The position numbers and the translations under genes are program-made. Below, piece by piece: positions 26,511-49,138 of a stretch of 64,000 bases of DNA; the first letter of the stretch is position 1, and each line of letters begins with the position of its first letter. Under the pieces are notes generated by a model. The model saw only the letters and a program-made list of their open reading frames with translations. It was not told the DNA's origin and ran no database searches. The stretch comes from Hyphomonadaceae bacterium. Lineage in GTDB: Bacteria; Pseudomonadota; Alphaproteobacteria; Caulobacterales; Maricaulaceae. Location of the stretch: contig JACOMS010000001.1 of NCBI GenBank assembly GCA_014324115.1, forward strand, positions 23,089 through 87,088, in the 5' to 3' direction.

Positions 26511-29500
26511 ATGAAAAAAGTAATTCGGAACATTATGGCGGCATCGGTTGCCGGTTTGGCCCTGGCCGCCTGTAGCGACAGTGACGACGACGTCGTTACG
26601 CCACCGCCTCCCCCGCCGCCTCCCCCGGCCGATACGGCTATGCCTGCGGTGAGCTTCAGTCCGGCGACGCTGACCGTAGATTCCGGCGGTACGGGGTCAT
26701 CAACCCTCGCCGCGACGGATAATGTGGGTGTTACAACCGGACCCACGGTGACATGTGATCAGGGTACCTTTGCTGACGATACCTACACCGCGCCTGTGGT
26801 CAGTGCCGATACCATGGCGACGTGTACCGCGACGGCTTCCGATGCTGCCAACAATGAAGGTACCGGCACGCTCACAATTTCCATCACCAGGGAAATGACA
26901 GCGCCGGTTGTCGCCTTCAGCCCGGATGCCCTTGTTGACGTGGCCTCCGGCGCGACGGTGGAATTGACAGTCACCGCCATGGATGATGTGGATGGTGACC
27001 TCGTCCCCGAGGTGACGTGTAAGTACGGTTCCTTTGACAGTGATAACAACACCTACACTGCGCCTGTGTTAAGTGCTGATACCGATGATGTGACGTGTAC
27101 CGCGACGGCAACTGACGCGGCCGGCAATGCAGGCACCGCCACAATCACGATTTCCGTTGCCGCGGAAACAGAACCGCCGGTTATCACCTTCACTCCTGCG
27201 ACTCTTGACGTGGCCTCCGGCGCGACGGGTATGTCAACCCTCGCTGCGACGGATAATCTGGATGATACGGTCGCCCCCGAGGTGACGTGTGATGCGGGTT
27301 CTTTTGCCGACAACACTTACACCGCGCCTGTGGTCAGTGTGGATACCGAGGCAACGTGTACCGCGATGGCAACTGACGCGGCCGGGAATGAAGGCGAAGC
27401 CGAACTCACAATTTCCGTCGCCAGGGAGATGACAGCGCCGGAAGTCGCCTTCGAACCGAACAGTGTTCCCGTGCAATCCGGCGAGACGGTTTCGGTGACA
27501 CTCACCGCGACGGATGATGTGGATGGTACGGTTGTCCCCACGGTGACGTGTACGAACGGTTCGTTTGATGTGGATGCCGGTACCTACACCGCACCTGACC
27601 TCAGTGCTGTTACCACGGCGACGTGTACCGCGACGGCCACTGACGCGGCCGGGAATGAAAGCGCCGCCGCCACGCTCTCGGTTATCATTGCCGCGGAAAC
27701 AACACCGCCGGTTATCACCTTCAGCCGGGATACTCTCGGCAGTGTGGCCTCCGGCGCGACGGCGGCGTTGACAGTCACCGCGACGGATAATGTGGATGGT
27801 GAGCTCGTCCCCGTGGTGACGTGTGATGCGGGTTCCTTTAATCTGGAGACCAACACCTACACTGCGCCTGTCGTCAGTGTGGATACCGAGGTGACCTGTA
27901 CCGCGACGGCAACTGACGCGGTCGGCAATGAAGGCACCGGGACACTCACATTTACTGTCGCCGCGGAAACGACGCAACCGGTCGTCACCTTCGAAGAACC
28001 GGTCCTTGTCCTGGCTTCCGGTGGAACGGATGTGTCGGTGGTCACGGTAACGGATAATGTGGATGGTATGATCGTCCCCGTGGTGACGTGTGATGGGGGC
28101 GGTTCCTTTAACGTGGAGACCAACACCTACACCGCACCTGACCTCAGTGCCGATTCCACGTTGACGTGTACCGCGACGGCAACTGACGCGGCCGGCAATG
28201 CAGGCACCGCCACGCTTAGAATTACCGTTGCCAGGGAACTGGTACGGCCGGTTGTATCCTTCGCCCCGGCGACCCTTGAAGTGGCCTCCGGCGCGACGGC
28301 TACGTCAATCCTTGCAGTGCAGGATAATGTGTCTATTGTTCCGGGAAGCGCCGCTGTGACGTGTGATCGGGGTCGCGTTGAACGGAGTGACTTTAGTCCG
28401 GATCCGGATAACGATAATCCGGATGTCGAAGCCTACGTCGCCACCATCACCTACAGCGCGCCCGTATTGAGTGCTGATGCCATGGCCACGTGTACCGCGA
28501 CGGTTTCTGATGGTGCCGGGAATACGGGCACCGGAACGCTCGCGATTTCCATCGCCAGGGAGACAGAGCCGCCGACGGTCACTTTCAGCCCGGATACCCT
28601 GACTGTGGATTCGGGCGGGGCGGTTGTGTCAACCCTCACCGCGATGGATAATCTGGATAGTGTGGTCGTCCCCGTGGTGACGTGTACGGATGGCGGTTCC
28701 TTTGCGAACGGCACCTATACCGCACCTCTCGTCAATGCTGATACGGAGGTGACGTGTACCGCGACGGCGACTGACGCGGCCGGGAATGAGGGCACCGCCA
28801 CACTCACAGTTTCCGTCGCCAGGGAAACAATGCCGCCGGTTATCACCTTCAGCCCGGACCTCCTTGAGGTGCTGTCGGGCATGACGGTGGAGAATGTGAC
28901 GGTCACGGCGAGAGACCCTGACGGCACGGAGGATGGTGACAAGGGGGTTGTGGAAACAGGAGCGGGCCGCCTCACGGTGGAATGTGATCAGGAGGGTTTC
29001 CTCAACACCAATACCAACACCTACACAGCGCCTGTCGTCAATGCTCCTACCACGGCGACGTGTACGGCGACGGTAACTGATCTTGCCGGGAATGAGGGCA
29101 CAGCCACACTCACAGTTCTCATCACGCTGACCTCTCCTCCCACTCCTCCCACTCCTCCCTCTCCCGACTCCTATGTTCGGAACATTTCTCCAGATCCGGT
29201 GTATTTCTTTGTCAGGGGTAGCGTGGTCTCCTCTGGTTTTTACGACGAGTTGAGACCAGGACAGACCTTGACCCCGGTGCAGGTCAGTGCGAGTAGAGAT
29301 GATCTTGTGCTGATCCGTGGTGCTGATGGGGCGGTTGCTCCCCCGCAGGTTGAGTGCACCAATGGCGGCAGGTTTCGGGGAACCACTTTTATTGCGCCGA
29401 GAGTCACTGAAACCACATACAGTGTCTGTACTGCGACGACTCCCGCAATTGGCGGTGTTTCCCGTGAGGCTACGCTTGTATTTGAGATCACTCCCGCCCC

Positions 29501-32180
29501 ACGGACGCCAACCTGCCCCGCCGGCTTTAGTAGAAATGCCGACTTGTCAGGAGAATTGTCAGATATAAATGATCCGAAGGTGGTCTGCACAATCAGGGCA
29601 CCCGGGGGTGTGCTGACTGGAACAACGGAGCTTAGGTATATTGAGGGTGTTGTTTATGAGCTGGACGGCCGTGTTGACGTGGGCGCAGCGGATGCCGATA
29701 GCGCTACTTGCGCAGGCGTGACGTCGGCCAGGCTGGTTATCCGGCCCGGTGTCACGGTTGTGGCTGATCAAAGGCGGGACCTTCTGGTCGTGAACCGCTG
29801 TCACCGGATTGAAGCTGTGGGAACGCAGGACCGTCCGATCCGCTTCTGGTCGAACGGGTCCGACACATGGGGCGGTATTGTTATCCTGGGTAATGCCGGG
29901 ATCGGTGTCTGTAATGTTGAGGATGCAACCCCTGGAACTGCCGGATGTCAGAATGCTGTCAGTGGCGTAACCGCAGCCGCAGGGGGAGCGTTGTGGTATG
30001 GCGGTGCCGGTGAGATGTCCAACAGCGGGATGCTTCAGTATGTGACCGTAAGCGGGGCCACGGGTCGTTTCGATAGGCGTAACGAGCAAGACGAGGCTGT
30101 TTCCTTCACCCCGGGCGGCGTTATATTCGCCGGTGTCGGTAACGGTACGACGGTGGACCGCATGCAGGTTGAACTCGAATGGAGTGGCGATAACGCCTCC
30201 AACGTCGCGGGTATGACGCTCCTCGGTGGGAATGTAAACATGAGTCGCGTTGTTCTCGCGGGGACCAGCAGTTCATACGAATACCTTGACGCAGAGGACA
30301 ACATGACTAGAACTGGTGCATATCTGGACATACGCAACGGTTACAGTGGTCGGATTCAGCGTCTGTTGATTGACGGGAGGGGCTCTTCGCAGGGCCAGTC
30401 CATCAGGGTCAACGCTTCCAATCCTGTCATCCGTAACTTCACCTTGGTGGAAGACGCCCGTGACAATACTCGCTGGATTGGTGGGGTAGGTACGTACCGG
30501 GACGGTGTTGTGATCAACACCTCCACGGATGGTGGCGACGCTTGTGTGGGGGGACCGGAAGAAGCCACGCTTGTCATCAGCTCCGTGCATTTTTACTGCA
30601 ATAATATGACTCCGCCAAGTATACTGACTGAGCGAGATGTGACTACTGGTATTGCTAACGGCGTCAATGGTAATGTTGTTAGTAGCACCATTCCGGACTT
30701 TGTAGACCCCCCCTCTCCGTACGCGGTATTCCTCCCGGTTCCGGAGACCATCAGTGTTTCCGCTGGTCGTTACCCTGGTGCTTTCAATCCGGACACGGAA
30801 ACGCTGACCGGGAACTGGACGACCGGTTGGGTGCGGTCATCGGGGACGAATTATCTGTCGCCGCGGATTGAGTGCCCGATGGGTACCAGTGAAGCCCCTT
30901 ATGATATTTTCGACCACAATGTCTGTGTGGTCAGCGCTACTTCCGTCCGTTCTAATTCTGGAGTCAACGAAATCAGCGACGCGGATGCTCTTGTGCGACT
31001 GACCCGCGGTAATCTGTACCGTCTTGACGGTCGTGTCGACATCGGTGTTGATGGCGGCGATACAGCTGAGCTTGTCATCGAACCGGGTGTTACAGTCTTC
31101 GGTCGCAACAATACGGATTACCTTGTGGTGAATGGCGGCTCTACAATCACAGCCAATGGTACGGCAGCCAACCCGATCATCTTTACGTCTGAAGAGGACG
31201 TCACAGGTGCCCGGGGTGGTCGCGATACGGCCGCCGGTGACTGGGGCGGTCTGGTCATTCTGGGCTCTGCGCCCATCACCAACTGTGATCTTGATGGCGT
31301 AACTCCCCGCACTGTCGGCTGCCAAAGCAGTATCTATGCGTCTGGTTACGGCGGCGGTGACGTTGACGACGATTCGGGTTCCTTAAGCTATGTCCAGGTC
31401 AGGTATGCCGGTTTTGGACCTTTCGACAGCGGTATCACCTTGGCCGGTGTCGGTAGGGGTACGACGGTTAAGAGCGTTCAGGTTCACAACACCGAAGGGA
31501 ACGGTATCCGCTACCTTGGCGGTACAGTGGACCCGGAGCGGATTGTTTTAACCGGTAATACCGGCCGGCAGCTTCACATTGACGGTGGTTATCTGGGCGG
31601 TATTCAACGCCTTGTCGGTGTTCAGAACGGGGTCGGGGTCGGCGGTATAGAGGTCGGCGGCAATCTCTCCAATCCGTATATCGCTAACTTCACTCTCGTC
31701 GGTACGGGCGACGAAGGTCCCGGTATCCGCGTGCGCGATGGTGCAATCGGAACCTGGCTGAATGGTGTTGTCACCAGTGATGGCGCCTGCCTTGACTATC
31801 AGCCGACAGCCGGTGACGGTATTGAGGGCCTTGAATCGAGGTCTGATCCGGAGTTCTGGTCTGTGCTGTTTGACTGTGCAGGCGGGCTGTTGACGCCGGG
31901 CAGTGACAGAACAACGGCTCTGGCCGCTGTTAATTCCGCCAGTGCCAATAATGAGACCGAGGAGGCCAACACCCTTGTCAACGGGTTTTTCAGAGGCAGG
32001 GCCGAGAGGGGAGTTCGTGCAACTCCGATTCCGCTTCCTCCCCCGCCTGCAAACGCTCCTGCTTCTCCTCCTGACGCAGCTTTGGAGGGAGGACTTGACT
32101 ACATCGGTGCTGTCGAGAATGCCTCTGATACCTGGTGGCAGGGATGGACGTATGGTCTGGAAAATTCAGACTCTGAATAA
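26511..32180 (+). CDS. Giant multi-repeat surface lipoprotein, 1889 aa
   Basis: Signal peptide with lipobox LALAAC, lipidated Cys21; +2 is Ser, so outer-membrane sorting is expected. A run of nine prolines (31-39) then leads to nine tandem Ig-like/cadherin-like repeats (~41-873) of about 88-110 aa, each with a FSPDTL.V.SG start, a TDNVDG-type turn, VTC, TYTAPVVSADT and CTATATDAAGN; two Cys per repeat suggest one disulfide each. A divergent tenth unit follows a Pro/Thr linker. Then come two beta-helix-like modules (roughly 985-1440 and 1450-1889) with VIEPGVTV, a YLVVN motif and GDWGGLVILGSAPI. The end has DTWWQGWTYGLE. Function unknown; an adhesin or substrate-capture role is inferred from its paralogue, the TonB-dependent receptor and T2SS nearby. 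GAGGGAAACC precedes the ATG. Confidence 0.9.
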   Translation: MKKVIRNIMAASVAGLALAACSDSDDDVVTPPPPPPPPPADTAMPAVSFSPATLTVDSGGTGSSTLAATDNVGVTTGPTVTCDQGTFADDTYTAPVVSADTMATCTATASDAANNEGTGTLTISITREMTAPVVAFSPDALVDVASGATVELTVTAMDDVDGDLVPEVTCKYGSFDSDNNTYTAPVLSADTDDVTCTATATDAAGNAGTATITISVAAETEPPVITFTPATLDVASGATGMSTLAATDNLDDTVAPEVTCDAGSFADNTYTAPVVSVDTEATCTAMATDAAGNEGEAELTISVAREMTAPEVAFEPNSVPVQSGETVSVTLTATDDVDGTVVPTVTCTNGSFDVDAGTYTAPDLSAVTTATCTATATDAAGNESAAATLSVIIAAETTPPVITFSRDTLGSVASGATAALTVTATDNVDGELVPVVTCDAGSFNLETNTYTAPVVSVDTEVTCTATATDAVGNEGTGTLTFTVAAETTQPVVTFEEPVLVLASGGTDVSVVTVTDNVDGMIVPVVTCDGGGSFNVETNTYTAPDLSADSTLTCTATATDAAGNAGTATLRITVARELVRPVVSFAPATLEVASGATATSILAVQDNVSIVPGSAAVTCDRGRVERSDFSPDPDNDNPDVEAYVATITYSAPVLSADAMATCTATVSDGAGNTGTGTLAISIARETEPPTVTFSPDTLTVDSGGAVVSTLTAMDNLDSVVVPVVTCTDGGSFANGTYTAPLVNADTEVTCTATATDAAGNEGTATLTVSVARETMPPVITFSPDLLEVLSGMTVENVTVTARDPDGTEDGDKGVVETGAGRLTVECDQEGFLNTNTNTYTAPVVNAPTTATCTATVTDLAGNEGTATLTVLITLTSPPTPPTPPSPDSYVRNISPDPVYFFVRGSVVSSGFYDELRPGQTLTPVQVSASRDDLVLIRGADGAVAPPQVECTNGGRFRGTTFIAPRVTETTYSVCTATTPAIGGVSREATLVFEITPAPRTPTCPAGFSRNADLSGELSDINDPKVVCTIRAPGGVLTGTTELRYIEGVVYELDGRVDVGAADADSATCAGVTSARLVIRPGVTVVADQRRDLLVVNRCHRIEAVGTQDRPIRFWSNGSDTWGGIVILGNAGIGVCNVEDATPGTAGCQNAVSGVTAAAGGALWYGGAGEMSNSGMLQYVTVSGATGRFDRRNEQDEAVSFTPGGVIFAGVGNGTTVDRMQVELEWSGDNASNVAGMTLLGGNVNMSRVVLAGTSSSYEYLDAEDNMTRTGAYLDIRNGYSGRIQRLLIDGRGSSQGQSIRVNASNPVIRNFTLVEDARDNTRWIGGVGTYRDGVVINTSTDGGDACVGGPEEATLVISSVHFYCNNMTPPSILTERDVTTGIANGVNGNVVSSTIPDFVDPPSPYAVFLPVPETISVSAGRYPGAFNPDTETLTGNWTTGWVRSSGTNYLSPRIECPMGTSEAPYDIFDHNVCVVSATSVRSNSGVNEISDADALVRLTRGNLYRLDGRVDIGVDGGDTAELVIEPGVTVFGRNNTDYLVVNGGSTITANGTAANPIIFTSEEDVTGARGGRDTAAGDWGGLVILGSAPITNCDLDGVTPRTVGCQSSIYASGYGGGDVDDDSGSLSYVQVRYAGFGPFDSGITLAGVGRGTTVKSVQVHNTEGNGIRYLGGTVDPERIVLTGNTGRQLHIDGGYLGGIQRLVGVQNGVGVGGIEVGGNLSNPYIANFTLVGTGDEGPGIRVRDGAIGTWLNGVVTSDGACLDYQPTAGDGIEGLESRSDPEFWSVLFDCAGGLLTPGSDRTTALAAVNSASANNETEEANTLVNGFFRGRAERGVRATPIPLPPPPANAPASPPDAALEGGLDYIGAVENASDTWWQGWTYGLENSDSE
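26631..29131 (+). repeat. Nine tandem ~270-bp repeats encoding Ig-like domains
   Basis: Blocks such as ACGTGTACCGCGACGGC and ACCTACACCGCGCCTGT recur roughly every 260-300 bp. Units keep nearly identical cores with more divergent edges. Repeat 7 carries an extra ~20-residue acidic insertion (around 28382-28445), and repeat 9 has an Asp/Gly-rich insertion (around 28911-28970). Such DNA can expand or contract by recombination and may be misassembled from short reads. Confidence 0.92.
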
Positions 32181-32201
32181 CCCTGATCACATCAACACAC
32201 G

Positions 32202-32235
32202 CAGGGCCGCGCAAACTGCGCGGCCCTGTCGTTTT
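32202..32235 (+). terminator. Strong Rho-independent terminator
   Basis: A perfect 11-bp stem CAGGGCCGCGC / GCGCGGCCCTG with loop AAACT, followed by TCGTTTT, 22 bp after the giant lipoprotein stop. It should separate that gene from the paralogue downstream. Confidence 0.88.
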
Positions 32236-32725
32236 AGCTCCTACAAATCTGAATAAAACGTCGCCCCGTATCAGCCTCGACAGGGCATCGGCCCCGGCAG
32301 GCCGACCGGAGGAAGACCGGGTACACAGCAACCCCTCCCTCCAAACGGGACATAAACGGTCGTTTTCCGAACAAAAACCCAAACACAGGCCCCGATGCGG
32401 AACGTTGAGGATATATGCTGCGTGCCCGGCGTGGGTGTCTGCAGCCCGCGCACCGGTTGTCCGGACAAGGCCGGAACCCGCCGCGTCATCCCGTTGCCTC
32501 ATCCCCTTGCGTTCGGGGCCTCACCCAAGGGCACGTGTGAATTCCCGTATGTATGTTTTGTGACAAAAAAGACCCATTTTCGTCATGAAAAAATCAGAAT
32601 TCCGACATCCAAAAATAAAAATTCTGTCACAACTCTCTGTCACAAGAACGGCCAAATCAGGCGGGAAAGACGAGCCCCTCGTCCTGTTCGCCAAAACAGA
32701 TCGTTCCTGTTGATGGAGGAAACCC
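32236..32725. other. Intergenic region before the second lipoprotein gene
   Basis: No coding frame is convincing over these ~490 bp. The last 160 bp are AT-rich compared with the surroundings and include the direct repeat CTGTCACAA (about 32633 and 32638-32646 region) and A-tracts, which suggests a promoter/regulator region for the lipoprotein gene at 32726, although I see no clean -35/-10 pair. Confidence 0.5.
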
Positions 32726-34717
32726 GTGAGACCAACTCTCCGCCACATGGCGTCAGCATCAGCTGTCGGCCTGGCCTTGGCCGCCTGCAGCCAGGGCAGT
32801 GAAATCATATCACCGGGTCTGACCGAAGTTACACGGGATACGATCCGCCCCGCAGTGAGCTTCAGTCCGGCGGTTATTACCGTAAATTCGGCCTCCACGG
32901 GTGTATCAACACTTACCGCGACGGATAATGTGGGTGTCACGGGCGGGCCTGACGTGACATGCACGCGGGGGTCTTTTGCGGGCAACACCTACACCGCCCC
33001 CGCAGTCAGTGTTAATACGGATATTGTGTGCACCGCGACGGCAACTGACGCGGCCGGGAATGCAGGCAGCGCCACACTCACGGTGTCCATCATCGCCCCG
33101 GACGAAACGGCCCCTGTTGTATCCTTCAATCCTGTGTCACTCACCCTGCCGTCCGGCGACACCGGAATGTCACAGGTTTCGGCAACCGACGCCGTTGACG
33201 GTGCGGTGACGCCGACCGTGTCCTGCACCAATGGCGGCAGCTATAACGTCGGTACAGGTGTGTTTACGGCGCCGACGGTCCCTGACAGCACAACCAGTGT
33301 GTGTACCGCGACAGCCACAGATTCAGAAGGCAACTCCGGTTCAGGTACGCTGACGGTCAACATCACATCCGCCACGGCGGCATCCTGCCCCGGGGATGGT
33401 GCGGGCTCTGCACTGGGTGAGCAGACACTCTGCAGTGTGCCACTCGGCAACCTTTCGGAATTCAGGGGTGTTTTGACCCAATCGGCAACGATTCCCTTTG
33501 TGGAGGGTGTTGTCTATGAATTGAGCGGTCGTCTTGACGTCGGCCGGGATGGCGGCAGTACCTGCGCGGATGTGACACCGGTTGTGCTGACCATAGAGCC
33601 CGGTGTCACGATTGCCGGTGATGCGGGCTCGGACTATCTGGTTGTCAACCGCTGTCACCGGATTGAAGCTTCGGGGACGCGGGAGGCTCCGATCATGTTC
33701 ACCAGCCGGAATGACATTGCCGGGGCCGGTGCACGCGAAAACGCCATCGGTGAATGGGGCGGTGTTGTTATTCTCGGCAATGCCCCGATTAATCGCTGTA
33801 ATGTTCCGGGTCGAACCGGCGGAACAACCGGATGTGAAAACATCATTGAAGGCGTGACTGAGCCGGATGCGCTGTATGGCGGTGCCGACGGGAATTCCAA
33901 TAGCGGGACCCTTCGATATGTGACTGTGCGCCATGCCGGTAATGAAGTTGCAACAGACGTTGAGCTGAACGGCATCACCTTCGGTGGTGTCGGTGACGGC
34001 ACAACGGTTGCGTACATTCAGGTTCACAACAGTTCTGACGATGGTATGGAATTCTTCGGTGGGACTGTAGACGCGCGTTACGTCGTTCTTACAGGTAACG
34101 ACGACGAGCAACTGGACACAGACAGCGGTTATCAGGGCAGCATTCAATATGTTATCGGTCTTCAGCGCGGCGGCGACACGTCTGACAACAGTATTGAGGC
34201 CAGTTCTGTTGCACCGGGCGTAACACCGGCGTCCGATGCGACCATTGCCAACTTCACGCTCATCGGTGCGGGCAACACGGACAGTCACGGTATCCGCGTC
34301 AACTCGGGCACAATCGGAACATACCTGAATGGTGTGTTGACTGACGGAAATGCCTGTCTTGACTATGAGGACGACGCCGGGGACGGTATTGAGGGCTTCA
34401 CGGCGGGGTCTGATCCGGCATTCCGGTCTGTGCTGTTTGACTGTGCAGGCGGGGTTTTGACAACAGATACGGATGATGACGCTGATCCGGTAACCGGCCA
34501 GGCCGCCGTTGACGCCGATGCAAACAATGTGACTGACGTAGACAACACGCTTGACGGGTTCGTCAACGGCACGGTCGAGGCTGCCGTGATTGCCGCCGCG
34601 GTTCCCCAAGGCAACACCTTCCTTGAGAGTGTTGATTACATCGGTGCTGTCAGGGATGCGTCCGATACCTGGTGGCAGGGCTGGACATGCGGTCTGGAAA
34701 CCTCCGATCCCTGTTGA
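32726..34717 (+). CDS. Paralogous surface lipoprotein, 663 aa
   Basis: Starts with GTG at 32726, with GGAGGAAACCC just before it, much like the leader of the giant gene. The lipobox LALAAC again puts the lipid on Cys21, with Ser at +2. Two Ig-like repeats (~45-225; RPAVSFSPAVITVNS..., APVVSFNPVSLTLPS...) are followed by one beta-helix-like module (~228-663): VVLTIEPGVTIAGDAGSDYL, GEWGGVVILGNAPINRC, FTLIGAGNTDSHGIRV and the C-terminal DTWWQGWTCGLETSDPC. It looks like a compact version of the 1889-aa protein. Function unknown; it is the gene immediately upstream of the TonB-dependent receptor, so it is the better candidate for a direct receptor partner. Confidence 0.9.
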   Translation: MRPTLRHMASASAVGLALAACSQGSEIISPGLTEVTRDTIRPAVSFSPAVITVNSASTGVSTLTATDNVGVTGGPDVTCTRGSFAGNTYTAPAVSVNTDIVCTATATDAAGNAGSATLTVSIIAPDETAPVVSFNPVSLTLPSGDTGMSQVSATDAVDGAVTPTVSCTNGGSYNVGTGVFTAPTVPDSTTSVCTATATDSEGNSGSGTLTVNITSATAASCPGDGAGSALGEQTLCSVPLGNLSEFRGVLTQSATIPFVEGVVYELSGRLDVGRDGGSTCADVTPVVLTIEPGVTIAGDAGSDYLVVNRCHRIEASGTREAPIMFTSRNDIAGAGARENAIGEWGGVVILGNAPINRCNVPGRTGGTTGCENIIEGVTEPDALYGGADGNSNSGTLRYVTVRHAGNEVATDVELNGITFGGVGDGTTVAYIQVHNSSDDGMEFFGGTVDARYVVLTGNDDEQLDTDSGYQGSIQYVIGLQRGGDTSDNSIEASSVAPGVTPASDATIANFTLIGAGNTDSHGIRVNSGTIGTYLNGVLTDGNACLDYEDDAGDGIEGFTAGSDPAFRSVLFDCAGGVLTTDTDDDADPVTGQAAVDADANNVTDVDNTLDGFVNGTVEAAVIAAAVPQGNTFLESVDYIGAVRDASDTWWQGWTCGLETSDPC

Positions 34718-34743
34718 TCACATATGACTGGAGCGGGCCGCGC

Positions 34744-34764
34744 ACGGGTGCGACCCCGTCGTTT
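34744..34764 (+). terminator. Weak hairpin after the second lipoprotein gene
   Basis: ACGGG (34744-34748) pairs with CCCGT (34755-34759), followed by CGTTT. The stem is only five base pairs, so it may allow readthrough into the receptor gene 40 bp downstream. Confidence 0.3.
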
Positions 34765-34803
34765 CAAATCCTGTCGGCACAGACATGACCCGGGGTTTTA
34801 TCC

Positions 34804-37395: not shown

Positions 37396-37475
37396 TACGC
37401 CTTTGTGACAAATGGGAAAGGTTGGAAATTCGGTCTTTCTCTTTTTGCGTGGCCTGTGTTACACGGCGAAAAATA

Positions 37476-40253: not shown

Positions 40254-40256
40254 TCC

Positions 40257-41753: not shown

Positions 41754-42959
41754 ATGGAGACGTTTGATTACGCTGCTTTCGACGCGGACGGCAATCGTTT
41801 GCGGGGGTCTGTTCCGGCCAATAATGCACGTGAAGCGCGCGATATACTGCGCGCCCGCCGCCTGACGCCGATTGATCTCAAGGCTTCAAAGGCCGGGGCG
41901 GGACAATCCTTTACCCTTGAACGCAAGGCGAGCCACAAGGACCTGACCCAGGCGACACGCCAGTTGAGCATATTGATTGATGCAGCCACGCCGGTCGAAC
42001 AATCGCTCAAAATTGTGGCTGTCCAGTTTGACCGCTCCGCCATGCGGCAAATCCTCCTGGACGTGCAGGCCCAGGTCCTGGAGGGGGCGCGGCTTTCCGA
42101 TGCCATGGGCAGACATTCCAAAACCTTTTCAAGTCTTTATACGGGCATGGTGGCGTCCGGGGAAACATCGGGCCGTCTCGCCGAGGTTCTTGATCGCCTC
42201 GCCACGGACCTTGAGGCCGCGCAAAAGGTGCGCCGCAGAATCCTTGCCGCTACCGTCTATCCCATGGTTCTCTTTGTGGTTGCATTGGTTGTTACCACAA
42301 TTTTGATGATTTTTGTTGTTCCCAAGGTTGTCGAGCAGTTTGACACATTCGGGCAGGAACTACCCGGCTTGACCAGGTTCGTGATAGGTATGTCCGAATG
42401 GATGCAGAATTATGGGCTGATTTTTCTGATTATGGTTTTGGCCTTTATGTTCGGTTTCAGCCGTGCGTTGAAAAAACCGGCAATGAGGCTGTGGTGGCAC
42501 GAACGGCTGTTATCCCTGCCGCTTGTCGGGCGCCTGATCCGTGATCTGAATGCGGCCCGATTCGCCCGCACCATGGCCGGGCTGATTGACAGCGGCACGC
42601 CGGCCCTGACGGCCATGGAAACGTCCAGACATACCCTTCGCAACCGGGTTATATATGATGCGGTTTCAGGCGCCGCTGCAAAGGTACGGGAAGGAGCCAC
42701 GGTCAGCGCCTCCCTGCGCCAGACAGGTGTTTTCCCGCCAATGGTGACACAGATGGTGGCGGGGGGCGAAGCCAGTGGTGATATCGGTAAAATGTTCAGC
42801 AAGTCGGCGGATTATCTTGAGGGCGAGTTTGATGCGGCGACCTCTATCTTTCTTTCACTTCTCGAACCTTTAATTATCATAATGATGTCGATTGTTGTAT
42901 TATTGATTATTGGTGCTATATTCATGCCGATCCTGCAAATGAACACACTGGCACTTTAG
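41754..42959 (+). CDS. gspF: Type II secretion platform protein F
   Basis: Polytopic inner-membrane platform protein, 401 aa. Two T2SSF domains: RQLSILIDAATPVEQSLKIV...GETSGRLAEVLDRLA, and ARFARTMAGLIDSGTPALTA...GGEASGDIGKMFSKSA, with three membrane helices (ILAATVYPMVLFVVALVVTT, GLIFLIMVLAFMFG, PLIIIMMSIVVLLIIGAIFM). Its ATG directly abuts the gspE stop codon (TAG-ATG). Confidence 0.96.
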   Translation: METFDYAAFDADGNRLRGSVPANNAREARDILRARRLTPIDLKASKAGAGQSFTLERKASHKDLTQATRQLSILIDAATPVEQSLKIVAVQFDRSAMRQILLDVQAQVLEGARLSDAMGRHSKTFSSLYTGMVASGETSGRLAEVLDRLATDLEAAQKVRRRILAATVYPMVLFVVALVVTTILMIFVVPKVVEQFDTFGQELPGLTRFVIGMSEWMQNYGLIFLIMVLAFMFGFSRALKKPAMRLWWHERLLSLPLVGRLIRDLNAARFARTMAGLIDSGTPALTAMETSRHTLRNRVIYDAVSGAAAKVREGATVSASLRQTGVFPPMVTQMVAGGEASGDIGKMFSKSADYLEGEFDAATSIFLSLLEPLIIIMMSIVVLLIIGAIFMPILQMNTLAL

Positions 42960-42962
42960 GAG

Positions 42963-43466
42963 ATGACTATGGTTGCAGAATGCGAAAATACCCAACCCGC
43001 GAATGAAAGGCCGGGTGCCAGAAAACCTGCAGCTAGAAAACGAAGCGGGGAAGCAGGTTTTACACTTGTCGAGATCATGATCGTCATGGTCATTATCTCC
43101 CTGCTCGCAACCGCCGTTGTTTTAAACCTCGGCGGCGTATTACCCGATGCCCAGGCCAAAAAGGCGAGAGCCGATATAAGCACCATTGATATGGCCCTTG
43201 AGCTGTATCGCCTTGACATGTATGATTACCCGGATGAAAGTTACGGCCTGAGGGCGCTCACGGAAGTACCGGCAGGTGCACCGAACGAGCAGAATTATTC
43301 TAAAGATGGATACATCAAAGGCGGTCTCCCGAATGATCCATGGGGCCGTCCCTATGTTTACCGTTATCCCGGTGAGTATGGTGTTTATGACATAATGTCC
43401 TACGGAGCGGACGGTGCTCCCGGTGGCGAGGGTAGGGATGCCGATATTACCAACTGGAACAAGTAG
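42963..43466 (+). CDS. gspG: Major pseudopilin G, long leader
   Basis: Core pseudopilin, 167 aa. The prepilin cleavage site is G32|FTLVE with Glu37 at +5, followed by the hydrophobic helix (IMIVMVIISLLATAVVLNLG). The globular part ends in the conserved Ca-binding-type loop region (NDPWGRPYVYRYPGEYGVYD, SYGADGAPGGEGRDADI). The leader is unusual: about 30 mostly polar and basic residues instead of the common 6-10. An ATG two codons in (42969) would not change this much; no start sits close to the cleavage site in frame. Confidence 0.95.
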   Translation: MTMVAECENTQPANERPGARKPAARKRSGEAGFTLVEIMIVMVIISLLATAVVLNLGGVLPDAQAKKARADISTIDMALELYRLDMYDYPDESYGLRALTEVPAGAPNEQNYSKDGYIKGGLPNDPWGRPYVYRYPGEYGVYDIMSYGADGAPGGEGRDADITNWNK

Positions 43467-43483
43467 GTCTTGTCACCTCCGCC

Positions 43484-43957
43484 ATGGGTGGCCATCGGAA
43501 ATCTGAGGCAGGGTTCACGCTCATAGAGCTTCTGGCGGTTCTGGTCATTATCGGCCTTGTGTCCGGCACTGTGGTCCTGAGCCTGTCGGGGCCAAAGGCC
43601 GCGGCCCGGACGGAAACGGAAGAACTGGTCCGGCAGTTTCGCCTGGCGGCAGAGGAAGCCATTATCACAGGCCGCCCCCACGCCTGGGGCCTGTCGGGTA
43701 CGGAGCACGTCTTTTTCCGGTTTCATGACACGGAATGGGTGCCTCTCTCCGAGCCTAGATTGAATCCCGGTTCACGTATTAAACTGACCCGCGAGGCCCG
43801 GAACGTCAAACTGACCGAGGAGATCATTCCGCTGGTGATATTCGAACCCATCGGCATGACAACGCGGTTTTCCCTGCGGATTGAAGCGGACGACCGGACG
43901 GTCACGATTGAAGGGCCGGGAGATGGACGCATTGAGCGCACGGAGACGGCCAAATGA
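43484..43957 (+). CDS. gspH: Minor pseudopilin H
   Basis: 157 aa. Short basic leader, then G|FTLIELLAVLVIIGLVSG with Glu at +5, followed by the GspH globular domain (ETEELVRQFRLAAEEAIITG, HAWGLSGTEHVFFRF). The ATG is 17 bp after gspG. It overlaps gspI by four bases. Confidence 0.93.
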   Translation: MGGHRKSEAGFTLIELLAVLVIIGLVSGTVVLSLSGPKAAARTETEELVRQFRLAAEEAIITGRPHAWGLSGTEHVFFRFHDTEWVPLSEPRLNPGSRIKLTREARNVKLTEEIIPLVIFEPIGMTTRFSLRIEADDRTVTIEGPGDGRIERTETAK

Positions 43958-44373
43958 CAAAATCGCCAAAGAAGGATAGGGGCTTTACCCTTATTGAAGT
44001 CCTGGCGGCACTGATCGTGTTCAGCATTGCGATATTGGGCCTGTCGCAGGCCGGTTCGCAAAGCGTGCGTTCCGTCGGTGTTTTGGAAAACCGGATGCTC
44101 GCCGGCATTGTGGCGGATAATGTATTGGTCCTGGCGCGCACGCGCGAGCCGGTACTGGGCCGCCAAGACGGCGAACAGACCCAGATGGGTCGCAAATTTG
44201 ACTGGGAGCTCGATATTGAGCGCACAGATGTGCCGGGGTTTTTGGAACTGACAGTGAACGTGCGTGCACAAGACACGTCGCAAGTGCTCATAACCCGAAC
44301 AGCCTATCTGTCACAGCAAAGGCGCACCGCACCCGCTAGCGGGACCTCGCCGGGTCAAGGGGCTAAACCATGA
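43954..44373 (+). CDS. gspI: Minor pseudopilin I
   Basis: 139 aa. MTKSPKKDRG|FTLIEVLAALIVFS, class III signal; GspI pattern RMLAGIVADNVLVLARTREP and MGRKFDWELDIERTDVPG, close to the GspI C-terminal consensus. Part of the I-J-K-H tip complex. Four-base overlaps with gspH and gspJ. Confidence 0.93.
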   Translation: MTKSPKKDRGFTLIEVLAALIVFSIAILGLSQAGSQSVRSVGVLENRMLAGIVADNVLVLARTREPVLGRQDGEQTQMGRKFDWELDIERTDVPGFLELTVNVRAQDTSQVLITRTAYLSQQRRTAPASGTSPGQGAKP

Positions 44374-44984
44374 CCGCAGAATCGAGTGTTTTACGTCACG
44401 ATGCCGGGTTCACGCTGGTTGAGGTGCTTGTCGCGATGTTTATTTTTTCCCTGATTTCCGTCGGCACATTTTACGCCATGACATCGGCCGTTGACAGTCA
44501 TGACCGCGTAAAAGCGGCCAATCAGCGTCTGGCCGGGATTGAAACCGCCCGCACCCTGATCAAATCCGATCTCGCCAATGTTGTTCTGACACCAACCCGT
44601 GATCCCTACGGCACACAAAGCCTGTATGTCTTTTCGGGCGGTGTGGATGATCTGTTCAACCTGACCCGCACGTCACGGGACAATCCCGGCGGTCTTGACA
44701 GGCGCGGAGACCTGCAACGGGTCGTTTACCGGGTCGAGGATGCCGCGTTGATCCGCGAAGTCCTGGCCCAGACCAACCCGGCCCCCCGGACGGATACAAT
44801 CCGGCAAACCCTGTTATCCGGCGTTGAACGCGCTGTTGTCGAGTTCTTCGAAAACGATCTATCCTACAACCAGCTTTATATTGGGAATGATCCGGATGCG
44901 ACTTTCTCTCATAACCGCGTCCGGCTGACACTGACCTTCACAGACGGTGATCAGCTGTCACAGGATTTCGAGCTCGCCCCATGA
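44370..44984 (+). CDS. gspJ: Minor pseudopilin J
   Basis: 204 aa. Leader MTAESSVLRHDAG|FTLVEVLVAMFIFS, then GspJ-like segments NQRLAGIETARTLIKSDLAN and RDNPGGLDRRGDLQRVVYRV. The C-terminal FSHNRVRLTLTFTDGDQL matches the family's edge strands. Four-base overlaps on both sides. Confidence 0.93.
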   Translation: MTAESSVLRHDAGFTLVEVLVAMFIFSLISVGTFYAMTSAVDSHDRVKAANQRLAGIETARTLIKSDLANVVLTPTRDPYGTQSLYVFSGGVDDLFNLTRTSRDNPGGLDRRGDLQRVVYRVEDAALIREVLAQTNPAPRTDTIRQTLLSGVERAVVEFFENDLSYNQLYIGNDPDATFSHNRVRLTLTFTDGDQLSQDFELAP

Positions 44985-46000
44985 GGCGGCCGGGCAAAGA
45001 TCGCGGTGCTGTTCTGCTGACCACATTACTGGTCATGACCGTTATGGCATCCCTGGCCGTATTGGTACTGGATGACATCCGGGTCTCGGTGAGGCGGGCG
45101 ACGAACATGTCCGATTATGCCCAGGCTGATTGGTATGTTCGCGCCTCCGAGGATTATGCCTCGTCCCATCTGGTCCAGAAAATGGCAGGTCAATCCGAAG
45201 CCGCCCTGAATGCCGCCCTTCTCCGCCCGCAGAACCTGTCCTTCCCCATCAAAGGCGGGGTTATCAGTTTCAACGCTCGTGACGGCAGTCACTGTCTGGT
45301 CGTCTCGACCATCGGCGAGGGGTCCGGGCCTGAACATTTGCGCAGGCTTCTGGAATATCTCGGTTGGGATCGTTCTGAAGCCATCAGTTTTGTCTCGGCC
45401 CTGCGCGACTGGCAGGACGTGGACTCGACGACTTTGCCGGGTGGGGCGGAGGATTTTGTCTATCTCGGCCTGGATCCGGCCTATCGTACCCCCAACCGTC
45501 CGATCATCTCCCTGACAGAGCTTCGCGCCATTGTCGGCATGACCGAAGACCGGTTTCAGGCATTACGCCCGTTTTTATGTGTCGGCGACGGGGTTGCCAA
45601 GACCCGGTTCAATATCAACACGGCCCATATGGGACATGCAATTCTCGTCGCCGCACTGCTGGGAGACGGTCGGCTTTTGACGGCGCAAAAGCTCATTGAG
45701 AATCGCCCCGGCGGCGGCTATGACGAAGAGAGCCTCCGTGAGGCGGCCAGCACTCTCGCTCCGGACGAACAGAAAGAAGACACGACCAGGAATATGGATT
45801 TGCAGGATTTCAGTTTTGCACCGGATACTGTCTGGATCGAAGCAAATATTTTCTACCGCAAGGCCCATCGTGCCGCCGTTTTTGAATTCCGGATTGACAA
45901 GAATCGGGTTTTACGCACCTATCGCCGCCTGTCGGCGGAGGCTAGGCGCCCTGACATAGCCGATCCCGGGCTGGAAACTGATACGGTGCTGACACAATGA
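44981..46000 (+). CDS. gspK: Minor pseudopilin K
   Basis: 339 aa, the largest pseudopilin and tip cap. Leader MRRPGKDRG|AVLLTTLLVMTVMA: the +5 Glu is absent, as is characteristic of GspK. The insertion domain with helix-hairpin repeats shows LLEYLGWDRSEAISFVSALR DWQDVD-type text and TELRAIVGMTEDRFQALRPF. Overlaps gspL by four bases. Confidence 0.93.
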   Translation: MRRPGKDRGAVLLTTLLVMTVMASLAVLVLDDIRVSVRRATNMSDYAQADWYVRASEDYASSHLVQKMAGQSEAALNAALLRPQNLSFPIKGGVISFNARDGSHCLVVSTIGEGSGPEHLRRLLEYLGWDRSEAISFVSALRDWQDVDSTTLPGGAEDFVYLGLDPAYRTPNRPIISLTELRAIVGMTEDRFQALRPFLCVGDGVAKTRFNINTAHMGHAILVAALLGDGRLLTAQKLIENRPGGGYDEESLREAASTLAPDEQKEDTTRNMDLQDFSFAPDTVWIEANIFYRKAHRAAVFEFRIDKNRVLRTYRRLSAEARRPDIADPGLETDTVLTQ

Positions 46001-47046
46001 GTTCGACGCCTTTCATATGGATGCCGGAGCGTCCCGATGCTGCGTGGGCGTGGCTTGACGACACGGGACAGCACGGCTGGGCCGTGACCCGCGAGGATAA
46101 GCAGGGCCTGGCAACCCGTCTCGGCCCGACTGCGAACATTGTCATTCCCGGCCAATGGGTACGCATATTCGCCCATGACCTTCCGAAAATGCGAAGTTCG
46201 GATCGCCTGAGTGCTGCCGGATTCAGCGTTGAGGATGATCTGGCCGCACCGGTCGCCGGTCAGCATGTCATCCTTGGCAAGGGTGAGGATAAACGTATCG
46301 GTGTTATCGCCGAAAACAAGATGGAGGCCGTCTGGACAGATGTGTCCGCGGCTAACATAGTTCCTTTGGCAATATACGCGGATTTCGATATCCTGCGCGG
46401 TGAAAAAGCCGTCGAGGTCATGGACCGTACGATCCAGCCCGGCCCCACAGGATATACAACTGACAACAGGGACGTGAAAGAGGTTCATCCAGTCGCGCTT
46501 GCGGAGCTTGTGGATATATCCTCTGCACTGAATTTCGGGCAGGGTGCCTACGCCTCGCGCCGAACTTTATCACTGGCCGACGGTCCGTGGCTTCGAATCG
46601 CGGCCATGCTGGTTGTGACCGCCTTGGCATGGTTGACCTGGCAGGGGGTTCAGGCCCGGGGGGTCAGTGCACAGGCGGAAGCGCTTCGAAATGAAATGAA
46701 CACCATGTATACACAGGCTACAGGTGAACCGGCCCCGGCCAATCTGGCGGCGACAGTGACTCGCGCCGCGCGTTCCGGTCAGGTCGGCGAAAGAGATTTT
46801 TTGTCTTTGTCGCGCGCCCTGTTTGAGGGCCTGTCCACCACCGATGAAGTTGTCATTGACACCCTGCGTTATGACAGCCGCCGCAACGAAATCTCGCTAC
46901 GTCTGATCTATTCGGATTTTGAAACTGCGGGGCAAATCGAGACCACATTCAGGGAACGCGGGGAGCGTTTTGTCTCCGGTGCGGTACGCGAACAGGGTGG
47001 CGCTCTCCTGGGTGAGGCTGTCTTTTCCAGTGGAGGCGAGTCATGA
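45997..47046 (+). CDS. gspL: Type II secretion protein L
   Basis: 349 aa. Cytoplasmic actin-like N-terminal domain (residues ~1-185) that binds GspE, one transmembrane helix (~198-215, IAAMLVVTALAWLTWQGVQA), and a periplasmic ferredoxin-like domain (DFLSLSRALFEGLSTTDEVV, LRYDSRRNEISLRLIYSDFE). Sequence similarity in the first domain is low; placement and architecture carry the assignment. Four-base overlaps with gspK and gspM. Confidence 0.9.
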   Translation: MSSTPFIWMPERPDAAWAWLDDTGQHGWAVTREDKQGLATRLGPTANIVIPGQWVRIFAHDLPKMRSSDRLSAAGFSVEDDLAAPVAGQHVILGKGEDKRIGVIAENKMEAVWTDVSAANIVPLAIYADFDILRGEKAVEVMDRTIQPGPTGYTTDNRDVKEVHPVALAELVDISSALNFGQGAYASRRTLSLADGPWLRIAAMLVVTALAWLTWQGVQARGVSAQAEALRNEMNTMYTQATGEPAPANLAATVTRAARSGQVGERDFLSLSRALFEGLSTTDEVVIDTLRYDSRRNEISLRLIYSDFETAGQIETTFRERGERFVSGAVREQGGALLGEAVFSSGGES

Positions 47047-47495
47047 AGTTTCTGGCCGACCGCTCACCCCGCGAACGTCTCCTGATCCTCATTATGCTGG
47101 TCCTGTTGGGGACATTCCTGATCTGGCAATTCCTGGTTTCACCGGTTCTGGGGATGCGTGCTGTTGCCGAAAGTGACCGGCAGGCTGCGATCCGGGATTA
47201 TGAAATCGTTGCGCAGAATCTGTCCGCCATGGAAGTCGACGGGTCTGAGAAAGCCGCGTTTACACGCAACATCCTTATTCAGGAAGCGCGGGCGGCGGGC
47301 ATCAGGATTTCCCGTGTCCAGCCACAAGGCGAAGATGCTATCAAGGTCTGGTTTGAGGATGCTCCTGCGTTGCAGGTTTTTACCTTTCTCGACGACCTCT
47401 CCGGGCGCTTTGATGTATCTGTCACCAACGCCCAGATCAATCGTCGCGACGGCGGAACCGTTGGCGCACAATTCACCTTGCTTGTCAGTGAATGA
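47043..47495 (+). CDS. gspM: Type II secretion protein M
   Basis: 150 aa. Short basic N-terminus (KFLADRSPRERLLILIMLVL), one transmembrane helix (~15-36), coiled-coil-like segment, then a ferredoxin-like periplasmic domain (NAQINRRDGGTVGAQFTLLV). It partners GspL. Four-base overlap with gspN. Confidence 0.88.
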   Translation: MKFLADRSPRERLLILIMLVLLGTFLIWQFLVSPVLGMRAVAESDRQAAIRDYEIVAQNLSAMEVDGSEKAAFTRNILIQEARAAGIRISRVQPQGEDAIKVWFEDAPALQVFTFLDDLSGRFDVSVTNAQINRRDGGTVGAQFTLLVSE

Positions 47496-48196
47496 AAACC
47501 ATCCTGATCATCACTGTTTTTGTCATTGGCGGGCTGACAGGCCTGTTGACCCAACTGCCTTTATCGTGGGTGGCGGGGTCTGCACTCAGATGGGGGCCGA
47601 CACAGCCGGTCGCCTCCGGCACGGTCTGGAAAGGACAGATTACCAACCTGCCGAGCCTGCAAACCCTCAGGATCACAACCCGTCCACTTAGTATATTGAC
47701 CCCGCAGAGCCTGTTTATTTTTGATGGGCAGGGGGTAGGTGTGTCCCTGAAAGGCGAAGCGGGACTGCGGCACATCAGGGATGTGGTCTATAGTGCCAAA
47801 CTGTCATCCATTCCCATAACCGATGGTCGCCTGCGTGAGTTGGCGGGCGACGTGCGTCTGACCGTGCGCTCGGCGACATTCGGTAAGCAATGTAAAACTT
47901 TGGGCGGCCGTGTCTGGACGAATTTGCTTGCATCCAATACGGCGCGCCTGAATTGGCGCGGTCCCGAATTATCCGGGCCGGTAACATGCGAGGACGGCAC
48001 CATCAGGGTAACCGTTTCCGGGCGTGATGATCAAACGGATGTCAATGCGACTATTGATCTGTTGCCGGAAGGAAACTATCAGTCCGATATTACTGTCAAT
48101 AGTCGTGATCCCGCGGCAGCGCTTGTTCTGCCCCTGTACGGTTTCGATGAAACGTCACAAGGTTTTCGCCTTGCCGAGCGGGGGCGGTGGCTATGA
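47492..48196 (+). CDS. gspN: Type II secretion protein N
   Basis: 234 aa with an N-terminal membrane anchor (ILIITVFVIGGLTGLLTQLP) and a beta-rich domain (TVWKGQITNLPSLQTLRITT, LSSIPITDGRLRELAGDVRL, LNWRGPELSGPVTCEDGTIR). GspN is a variable member of T2SS operons with an uncertain role. It overlaps the following lipoprotein gene by four bases (ATGA), so that gene is translationally coupled. Confidence 0.88.
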   Translation: MKTILIITVFVIGGLTGLLTQLPLSWVAGSALRWGPTQPVASGTVWKGQITNLPSLQTLRITTRPLSILTPQSLFIFDGQGVGVSLKGEAGLRHIRDVVYSAKLSSIPITDGRLRELAGDVRLTVRSATFGKQCKTLGGRVWTNLLASNTARLNWRGPELSGPVTCEDGTIRVTVSGRDDQTDVNATIDLLPEGNYQSDITVNSRDPAAALVLPLYGFDETSQGFRLAERGRWL

Positions 48197-48684
48197 GATG
48201 GATGAAGCTGCTCCTGGCTTTTTCGTTGTCGGCCTGTGCCACAGCGGACGATGCGCCCCCGTCCCAAAGTTCTGTGCCCTCGTCCCAAAGTTCTGCGCCG
48301 TCGGTTTCGTCCCGGCAGCCGGGACAATTAGGCCCGCGCGAGCTTGCTTCCGGTCAGTGCGGCCTGTTTGTCTGGACAGGAGATGCAAGACGGCGGTTTA
48401 TTCTGTTTTCGGATAGCCAGCGCAGTCAGGCCGCCCTTGCGACCGCATCCGGAGAAATCCCCTTGCAAATCACGTCCGAAACCGGTTCCGACGCCTATTT
48501 TCAATATCCGGTAACATCCTACCGGACTGAAACGGGCGAAACGGTCAATCTGGCTCTTGGGGATTATCGGGACACTACCTCCGGACGAAGCTACAGATCC
48601 GGTACCCTCAAAACTACGCGCGGTGACGGCTGGGAACAGGTCACGCCGGTCATTGGCCTTGCCGTCTGTCAGCCACCTGCATAA
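48193..48684 (+). CDS. Small lipoprotein coupled to the gsp operon
   Basis: 163 aa from the ATG at 48193, which overlaps the gspN stop. Signal peptide with lipobox FSLSAC (Cys13), then a Ser/Pro/Gln-rich spacer with a duplicated PSSQSSAP-type unit, and a globular domain with paired Cys (SGQCGLFVWTGDARRRFILF ... GLAVCQPP). Similar SGQCGLFLW-type domains occur in small alphaproteobacterial lipoproteins of unknown function. Its coupling to gspN and outer-membrane sorting (+2 Ala) make it a candidate T2SS accessory protein, such as a secretin pilotin or substrate. That is inference; no pilotin family signature is visible. Confidence 0.75.
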   Translation: MRWMKLLLAFSLSACATADDAPPSQSSVPSSQSSAPSVSSRQPGQLGPRELASGQCGLFVWTGDARRRFILFSDSQRSQAALATASGEIPLQITSETGSDAYFQYPVTSYRTETGETVNLALGDYRDTTSGRSYRSGTLKTTRGDGWEQVTPVIGLAVCQPPA

Positions 48685-48688
48685 GCCA

Positions 48689-49138
48689 TCATCTCCTGGC
48701 AAAATGTCCTGCCGCCCAGACGATAAAAATTGCCAGGGCCAGAAACGGGCCGAAAGGAATATGCCCCGACCCGGTCCGGTTGCGCATGGAAGGGAACATT
48801 GCTGCTATCAGTCCCAGACTGCTGCCGATCATCACGATAAAGGGTAGAAACATCCAGCCGACCCAGGCCCCGCCTGCGGCCAGTAATTTCGCATCGCCGC
48901 GCCCCAGTCCGTCTTTTTTGCGGATGCGTTTGAATAATAGTTCAATGCCGACAAAAACAGAATACCCCGCTACCGCGCCAATCAGGCCTGCCAGAAAGAA
49001 TCCGCCTGAATATGCCTGCACCAAGCCTGCGGCGATCAGGGGTAATGTCAGAATATCCGGCAGGCGACAGGTGCGAAAATCAACCCATGACAGACAGGTC
49101 AATAAAGCCAGCAGAATAAGTCCAAACACAACAACCAT
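48689..49138 (-). CDS. gspO: Prepilin peptidase, short type
   Basis: Membrane aspartic peptidase that processes pseudopilin leaders, 149 aa with about five helices. Active-site Asp residues: SWVDFRTCRLPD and the GxGD-type GLGRGDAKLLAAGG. It lacks the N-terminal Cys-rich methyltransferase domain of full-size PilD/GspO, like CpaA-type A24 peptidases. The frame is open far upstream, but membrane-type sequence begins at MVVVFGLILLALL (49138). It is convergent with the gsp operon (4 bp from the lipoprotein gene) and divergent from mgtE. It presumably processes GspG-K; the conserved site in those genes fits. Confidence 0.9.
   Translation of the reverse strand: MVVVFGLILLALLTCLSWVDFRTCRLPDILTLPLIAAGLVQAYSGGFFLAGLIGAVAGYSVFVGIELLFKRIRKKDGLGRGDAKLLAAGGAWVGWMFLPFIVMIGSSLGLIAAMFPSMRNRTGSGHIPFGPFLALAIFIVWAAGHFARR

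What the first reader, a model, noticed from the sequence alone, without database searches (positions are those of the whole stretch)
26511..49138. Two paralogous giant/compact lipoproteins and a TonB-dependent receptor next to a complete type II secretion operon
Directly seen: two lipoprotein genes with the same LALAAC-Cys21 start, Ig-like repeats, beta-helix-like module and a C-terminal DTWWQGWT motif, then a TonB-dependent receptor, then gspC-N, a coupled small lipoprotein and gspO. Known: the T2SS can export lipoproteins to the surface (for example ElpS of Caulobacter). Inference: the lipoproteins are surface-exposed T2SS clients working with the receptor to capture or process a substrate.
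Basis: partly seen in the sequence, partly recalled or inferred. Interest (0 to 1): 0.85.

Follow-up and report, generated by a model that had tools for sequence, protein, structure and literature searches.

The report
Phosphate-starvation surface lipoprotein locus, expanded
The window holds a known bacterial locus (a surface lipoprotein called ElpS, its partner receptor and a protein-secretion machine, linked to phosphate shortage), and the unusual part is that this one species has multiplied the lipoprotein into roughly sixteen patchwork copies, while nearly all its relatives have one or none.

Summary
The genes are there as described. The core is a known arrangement: Caulobacter cc0170 (elpS) - cc0171 (TonB-dependent receptor) - gspC-N - gspO in reverse, published in 2010. 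P2 (32726-34717) is the ElpS-like gene of this locus. P1 (26511-32180) is a diverged paralogue with nine Ig repeats.

The lipoprotein-receptor pair is the conserved unit. The receptor lies directly downstream in 79 of 80 named loci. In 137 genomes of the same family, both genes occur in exactly the same 64. The T2SS is linked more loosely: gspC is present in 63 of those 64, but adjacent in only 45. Pho boxes lie upstream of many ElpS genes.

Caulobacter ElpS reaches the cell surface without the T2SS, which is needed only for its later release.

What is new is an expansion in this genome. It carries about 16 ElpS-like genes and at least 10 remnants, against one gene or none in nearly all of the other 136 family genomes. 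The copies are mosaic, carry Ig repeats, and show signs of local gene conversion. Only one cognate receptor and one T2SS were found. Composition and dS argue against mis-binning and strain variants. The function of the extra copies is unknown.

The parts
26511..32180 (+). P1: giant ElpS-like lipoprotein (1889 aa): SPII signal (Cys21), Pro-rich linker, nine Ig-like repeats, two beta-helix modules, C-terminal DTWWQGWT
   Evidence: homologous to P2 and to ElpS-like proteins of relatives
29607..30827 (+). P1 beta-helix module 1 (the usual ElpS-like protein of the family has two such modules)
30987..32171 (+). P1 beta-helix module 2
32201..32229 (+). terminator-like hairpin after P1 (13 pairs)
32549..32566 (-). 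weak Pho-box-like site TTGTCACAAAACATACAT (9 of 14 to the strict consensus; above the 99th percentile of a PWM refit on ElpS upstream regions); inconclusive
32624..32643 (+). direct repeat CTGTCAC-N6-CTGTCAC, 13-bp period (canonical Pho box has 11); inconclusive
32726..34717 (+). P2: ElpS-like lipoprotein of this locus (663 aa, GTG start): Cys21, SEIISPG motif after Cys, two Ig-like repeats, one beta-helix module
   Evidence: 64-67% identical to the ElpS-like modules of G017
33419..34714 (+). P2 beta-helix module incl. DTWWQGWTCGL end; right-handed beta-helix model, pLDDT 93
34804..37395 (+). cognate TonB-dependent receptor (CC0171-like)
37498..38337 (+). gspC
38334..40253 (+). gspD secretin
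40257..41753 (+). gspE
41754..42959 (+). gspF
42963..43466 (+). gspG
43484..43957 (+). gspH
43954..44373 (+). gspI
44370..44984 (+). gspJ
44981..46000 (+). gspK
45997..47046 (+). gspL
47043..47495 (+). gspM
47492..48196 (+). gspN
48187..48684 (+). small lipoprotein coupled to gspN; homologues follow gspN in sister species
48689..49138 (-). gspO prepilin peptidase (Peptidase_A24), opposite strand, as in Caulobacter

Best explanation
This is the ElpS-CC0171-T2SS phosphate-starvation locus in an uncultured Maricaulaceae species, with the lipoprotein gene duplicated. SHOWN HERE: P2 is the ElpS-like protein next to the receptor; lipoprotein and receptor are an inseparable gene pair; the lipoprotein module is modelled as a right-handed beta-helix; Pho boxes precede many homologues; this genome has about 16 mosaic, Ig-repeat-bearing copies instead of one. 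SHOWN IN CAULOBACTER BY OTHERS: ElpS is induced by phosphate limitation, sits on the outer face of the outer membrane without help from T2SS, is released when T2SS works, and raises extracellular phosphatase activity when overproduced. INFERRED: the beta-helix lipoprotein binds a phosphorus-containing polymer or glycoconjugate at the surface and hands it, or its products, to the receptor for TonB-driven uptake, as SusD or TbpB do for their receptors. The T2SS next door secretes the hydrolases and protease of the same starvation response. The extra copies, with one receptor and one T2SS found for all, have probably moved to other surface-binding tasks (different ligands, adhesion, or decoys), with Ig repeats serving as stalks.
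For: Same gene order and gspO orientation as cc0170-cc0171-gspC-N-gspO. Receptor directly downstream in 79/80 loci, the 80th being at a contig end. Identical presence/absence of lipoprotein and receptor in 137 genomes, 64 both and 73 neither, all 64 adjacent. Pho box upstream (at least 11 of 14 matches) in 37/75 against 1.7 expected from shuffles. In two sister species the T2SS adjoins what read as phoU-pstBACS and a phosphate-porin-like gene (by eye, not HMM-tested). T2SS and several TonB-dependent receptors belong to the Caulobacter PhoB regulon (PMC11208175). In Flavobacterium, lipoproteins with modest homology to the Caulobacter low-phosphate lipoprotein are strongly induced by Pi depletion, one beside a TonB-dependent transporter (PMC8115612). 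Surface exposure independent of T2SS (PMC2996285). Beta-helix model with pLDDT 93, nearest solved fold pectate lyase Pel9A, E = 9e-4. Expansion. Only one orthologous receptor in this genome.
Against: No Pho box stands before P1 (shuffle p = 0.37), and the P2 site is only suggestive, so phosphate control in this species is unproven; G017 also lacks a clear box. Deleting cc0171 did not stop ElpS production, and no change in phosphate content was detected in Caulobacter, so the uptake role is untested. Purified ElpS had no phosphatase activity. C. vibrioides CC0170 itself could not be compared by sequence here; the link rests on gene order and on single-module homologues with receptor and gsp genes in Phenylobacterium and Brevundimonas. 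The Foldseek matches are generic for the fold class (TM 0.3).
Confidence: 0.68

Rival explanations
1. One reading: P1 and P2 are direct T2SS substrates, carried to the surface by the adjacent secretion system, where they feed the receptor.
For: Adjacency in 45/64 family genomes and T2SS present in 63/64 that have the lipoprotein. A lipoprotein, pullulanase of Klebsiella, is an accepted T2SS substrate (PMC7857515).
Against: Caulobacter ElpS is on the surface in the gspC-N deletion. gspC is elsewhere in 18 family genomes and not found in one. In the named set, 51 of 80 pairs have no gsp cluster within the 10 kb flank fetched, though some contigs end early.
Confidence: 0.15
2. The expanded family, P1 included, is no longer a nutrient system. 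It is a set of adhesins or surface-coat proteins that diversify by duplication and gene conversion, perhaps against phage, predators or a host.
For: About 16 copies in 2.3 Mb with one receptor and one T2SS. Ig-like arrays are typical stalk domains. Copies share near-identical or exact stretches inside otherwise diverged genes. Contigs end inside these genes far more often than chance (about 22 of 250 ends, p about 2e-10).
Against: dN/dS is 0.14-0.59 in the closest pairs, so purifying selection dominates. No promoter switch or recombinase was found. No population data.
Confidence: 0.3
3. The extra copies are mostly decaying by-products of repeat-driven duplication, with P2 the only functional gene.
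For: At least ten fragments or frame-broken copies (C2, C5, C15, C19, C21, C23, C27, C32, C72). One copy on C2 fuses a signal peptide directly to the C-terminal tail.
Against: Long intact frames (P1 1889 aa, C99 1596 aa, C10 and C117 over 1000 aa), signal peptides and C-terminal motif kept, dN/dS below 1.
Confidence: 0.2
4. The expansion is an artefact of a composite metagenome bin or of strain variants.
For: The genome is a 125-contig assembly and many copies lie at contig ends.
Against: Tetranucleotide distances of most copy-bearing contigs to the window (12-21; C99 22.8 and C75 26.1 are higher and have little unmasked sequence) match those within the window contig (12.5-18.5) and are below sister species (22-47). 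Estimated contamination is 0.27%. dS between copies is at least 0.18. P1, P2 and the long C99 gene are complete inside contigs.
Confidence: 0.07

Closest known systems
ElpS (CC_0170) - CC_0171 - gspC-N - gspO locus of Caulobacter crescentus (PMC2996285)
   Same: Gene order, gspO orientation, lipoprotein followed directly by a TonB-dependent receptor and T2SS
   Different: Two tandem lipoproteins instead of one, Ig-like repeats inserted after the signal peptide, no clear Pho box at P1, and many further copies elsewhere in the genome
PUSIII / FI-FII-FIII lipoproteins of Flavobacterium johnsoniae (PMC8115612)
   Same: Low-phosphate-induced lipoproteins modelled like polygalacturonase (beta-helix), one beside a TonB-dependent transporter; the authors report 31-36% identity over 50-54% coverage to the Caulobacter low-phosphate lipoprotein
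   Different: Bacteroidota, three forms, no adjacent gsp operon reported
SusCD and TbpAB/HpuAB bipartite receptors
   Same: Surface lipoprotein paired with a TonB-dependent transporter
   Different: Unrelated lipoprotein folds: here a right-handed beta-helix with no Pfam family. TbpB and HpuA use Slam for export
Pullulanase (PulA), a T2SS-exported lipoprotein
   Same: A surface lipoprotein connected with a T2SS
   Different: ElpS reaches the surface without T2SS in the only case tested

Membership tests
ElpS / CC0170 family | SPII lipoprotein signal | tested here: met
   P1 and P2 have LALAAC with Cys21, by sequence pattern only
ElpS / CC0170 family | Beta-helix module homologous to the single lipoprotein encoded before TBDR-gspC-N in Caulobacterales | tested here: met
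   P2 module matches Phenylobacterium, Brevundimonas and Maricaulis homologues at 39-45% identity and G017 of the same family at 64-67%
ElpS / CC0170 family | CC0171-like TonB-dependent receptor directly downstream | tested here: met
   (P2 only; P1 is followed by P2)
ElpS / CC0170 family | Phosphate-starvation control (Pho box) | tested here: inconclusive
   37/75 homologues have a box; the window's P2 has only a weak site, P1 none
ElpS / CC0170 family | Direct sequence match to CC_0170 itself | not tested
   Named C. vibrioides sequence not retrieved; identity inferred from synteny
T2SS substrate lipoprotein (PulA-like) | Surface display lost without T2SS | not testable with these tools
   Published result for Caulobacter ElpS is negative
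Type II secretion system | gspC-N plus prepilin peptidase | tested here: met
SusCD-type pair | SusD-family lipoprotein | tested here: not met
   No SusD Pfam match in P1 or P2; module has no Pfam family
Slam-dependent surface lipoprotein | Neighbouring Slam gene | tested here: inconclusive
   No Slam-like gene was recognised among the genes examined at the locus, but no dedicated Slam search was made

The most novel reading that the evidence does not exclude
One Maricaulaceae species has turned the single-copy phosphate-starvation lipoprotein ElpS into a multigene family of about 16 Ig-stalked, mosaic beta-helix surface proteins that exchange segments by gene conversion: a variable surface-receptor or coat repertoire that grew out of a nutrient-uptake pair.
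Probability: 0.2. Interest if true: 0.62.

Novelty: new variant of a known kind. Interest (0 to 1): 0.42.

Why it matters
It turns a loose 'T2SS plus lipoproteins' story into a sharper one. The widespread, unnamed beta-helix lipoprotein and its receptor behave as one inseparable unit, tied to phosphate stress, with T2SS as a usual companion rather than as its exporter. That leaves open how ElpS crosses the outer membrane and what it binds. The one-species expansion gives a natural experiment: if the extra copies bind different ligands or vary between strains, a nutrient-uptake lipoprotein can evolve into a diversified surface repertoire.

Tried and rejected
Pfam and PDB sequence searches for the module: nothing. 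Foldseek with the full P2 model: no match below E = 0.001, confused by low-confidence Ig domains, hence repeated with the module alone. PADLOC: nothing. The idea that dispersed copies sit next to their own dedicated receptors was rejected: only one P0003 orthologue in the genome, and the next best match has E = 2e-14; other TonB receptors near copies (C15, C63, C75) sit among carbohydrate-type or unrelated genes (by eye). The idea that copies are carried by a mobile element was rejected for now: homology stops within about ten bases after the stop codon and no shared terminal repeats were seen, although upstream stretches of 150-350 bp are shared in small groups. The idea that loss of T2SS explains the absence of elpS in the sister species was rejected: they keep T2SS genes. 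Assembly or binning artefact was largely rejected. The copy count is an estimate (about 5 genes complete or nearly so plus 11 split genes, from 11 N-terminal and 11 C-terminal ends at contig edges), not an assembly-proven number. In the order-wide search only four candidates per genome were scored, so it is not a full census of copy number; in the family-wide search up to twelve were scored.

Full report
OBSERVATION. P1 (26511-32180) carries a lipobox Cys at 21, nine Ig-like repeat ends, two beta-helix modules and a terminal DTWWQGWT. P2 (32726-34717, GTG start) carries the same signal type, two Ig-like repeats and one module. The receptor has Plug and barrel domains. gspC to gspN are each supported by their Pfam family, gspH only just. 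gspO is on the opposite strand. A strong terminator-like hairpin separates P1 from P2.

KNOWN ARRANGEMENT. Le Blastier et al. 2010 (PMC2996285) describe cc0170 (ElpS), cc0171 (TonB-dependent receptor), gspC-N and an opposite gspO in Caulobacter, and the same tandem in Xanthomonas campestris, Sphingomonas alaskensis and Hyphomonas neptunium. The window matches this. P2 is the ElpS-like gene of the locus: its module is 64-67% identical to both modules of the ElpS-like protein of G017, a genome of another genus of the family, and it keeps the SEIISPG stretch after the Cys that G017 has. A related C..[IV].SPG motif is found in 52 of 76 named homologues by a strict pattern. P1 lacks it and its modules are more distant from P2's (36-53%).

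THE PAIR IS THE UNIT. A scan of 84,980 species genomes with the module profile gave 80 named loci. A homologue of the receptor lies downstream in 79, and the 80th is cut by a contig end. Two or more gsp genes lie within 10 kb in 29 of them, a lower bound because some contigs end early. In 137 genomes of the window's family, lipoprotein and receptor occur in exactly the same 64 genomes and are adjacent in all 64 (Fisher p about 1e-40). GspC is found in 63 of these 64 and in 36 of the 73 others (p = 6e-12), and is adjacent in 45. These p-values treat genomes as independent, which they are not; the identity of the two sets is the point. The family is Maricaulaceae: member G103 has the same contig coordinates as L097, Maricaulis sp. 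HXMU1422-2.

PHOSPHATE LINK. A strict Pho-box search (CTGTCAT-N4-CTGTCAT, at least 11 of 14) within 350 bp upstream succeeds in 37 of 75 homologues against 1.7 expected from shuffles. In the window, P1 has none and P2 only a weak site. In sister species G001, G002 and G006 the genes upstream of gspC start with a nudix-like gene; in G002 and G006 they continue with genes that read as phoU, pstB, pstA, pstC, pstS and a porin, while in G001 only the porin-like gene follows (identified by eye from the sequences, not by HMM). The T2SS and several TonB receptors are in the Caulobacter PhoB regulon (PMC11208175). Flavobacterium FI-FIII lipoproteins, with modest homology to the Caulobacter protein and strong induction by Pi depletion, extend the theme to Bacteroidota (PMC8115612).

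The cited precedent says the reverse: ElpS is proteinase-K accessible in both wild type and the gspC-N deletion, 'independently of T2SS'. Its release needs T2SS and is blocked by protease inhibitors. So the best model is surface lipoprotein plus receptor, with T2SS as a co-regulated secretion arm that includes a releasing protease. That P2 behaves like ElpS in this respect is inference.

STRUCTURE. AlphaFold2 models the module as a right-handed beta-helix (mean pLDDT 93). The full P2 model has poor Ig domains. Nearest solved folds are pectate lyase Pel9A (E = 9e-4, TM 0.3), tailspikes and alginate epimerases, i.e. the fold class only. There is no Pfam family and no PDB sequence relative. Invariant or near-invariant acids D207, D208, E211, D229, D233 and E260 recur at about one-coil spacing. 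A metal- or ligand-binding ladder is inference.

THE EXPANSION. In this 2.3 Mb, 90%-complete genome P2 matches 86 places. Open-frame mapping gives about five genes complete or nearly so (P1, P2, C99, and C65 and C2 with broken frames) and eleven N-terminal plus eleven C-terminal ends cut by contig edges. That suggests about 16 genes, plus at least ten fragments. Both SPII and SPI-type signal peptides occur. Nearly every other match-bearing genome in the family has one bimodular gene of about 940 aa (G075 has two loci in a 6%-contaminated bin; a few are contig-cut or split), and nine species of the same genus have none. The highest number of scored matches elsewhere in the order was three, with only four candidates scored per genome.

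IS THE EXPANSION REAL? Most copy-bearing contigs have the composition of the window contig (12-21, against 12.5-18.5 within the contig and 22-47 for sister species); C99 (22.8) and C75 (26.1) are outliers with little sequence left after masking. dS between copies is at least 0.18 and dN/dS 0.14-0.59 in the closest 30 comparisons, so these are paralogues under constraint, not strain variants. Identity along pairs is uneven (C98 vs C2: 85-98% over the first 600 bp, then 33-97%), and three contig ends share exact 99-mers with otherwise diverged copies. This suggests gene conversion, but the 99-mers may also reflect the assembler's graph, so it is not proof.

VERDICT. The locus itself is known; the two-lipoprotein, Ig-extended form and the one-species expansion make it a new variant of a known kind. 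The pairing with the receptor is very strong, the phosphate link strong for the family and weak for this species, T2SS-dependent surface export contradicted in the homologue, and the role of the expansion open.

Noticed in passing
L155 and L156 (also L157 in part): genes upstream of gspC in sister species: In sister species of the genus, the T2SS without elpS adjoins a nudix-like gene and, in L155 and L156, genes that read as phoU-pstBACS and a phosphate-porin-like gene, another link between T2SS and phosphate.
   Followed up: partly
window 48187-48684: Small lipoprotein overlapping gspN has homologues at the same place in sister species (29-40% identity) and one in Sandarakinorhabdus L087; it may be a pilotin-like T2SS factor. 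No Pfam match.
   Followed up: partly
L013 about 4640-4800 (G000:C72, before the copy at 20799): A short tandem repeat (GGCGTCGGAGTAAT units) stands just upstream of one dispersed copy, a possible length-variable promoter.
   Followed up: no
L034 7331-7567 (G000:C27): A C-terminal fragment of the lipoprotein family runs in frame into an ankyrin-like repeat sequence, and an ankyrin-like gene lies nearby.
   Followed up: no
L010 3967-4327 (G000:C2): A copy reduced to a signal peptide fused to the C-terminal tail, as if the middle had been deleted, then frame-shifted.
   Followed up: partly
window 26571-26592: P1's mature start CSDSDDD resembles the acidic surface-export signal of Bacteroidota lipoproteins (own knowledge); P2 lacks it.
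   Followed up: no
L012, L018, L019, L033 (contigs C99, C21, C5): Several short dispersed repeats outside the lipoprotein genes (for example 186 bp shared by C99 and C5 at 93%, 225 bp within C21 at 93%) suggest a repeat-rich genome.
   Followed up: no
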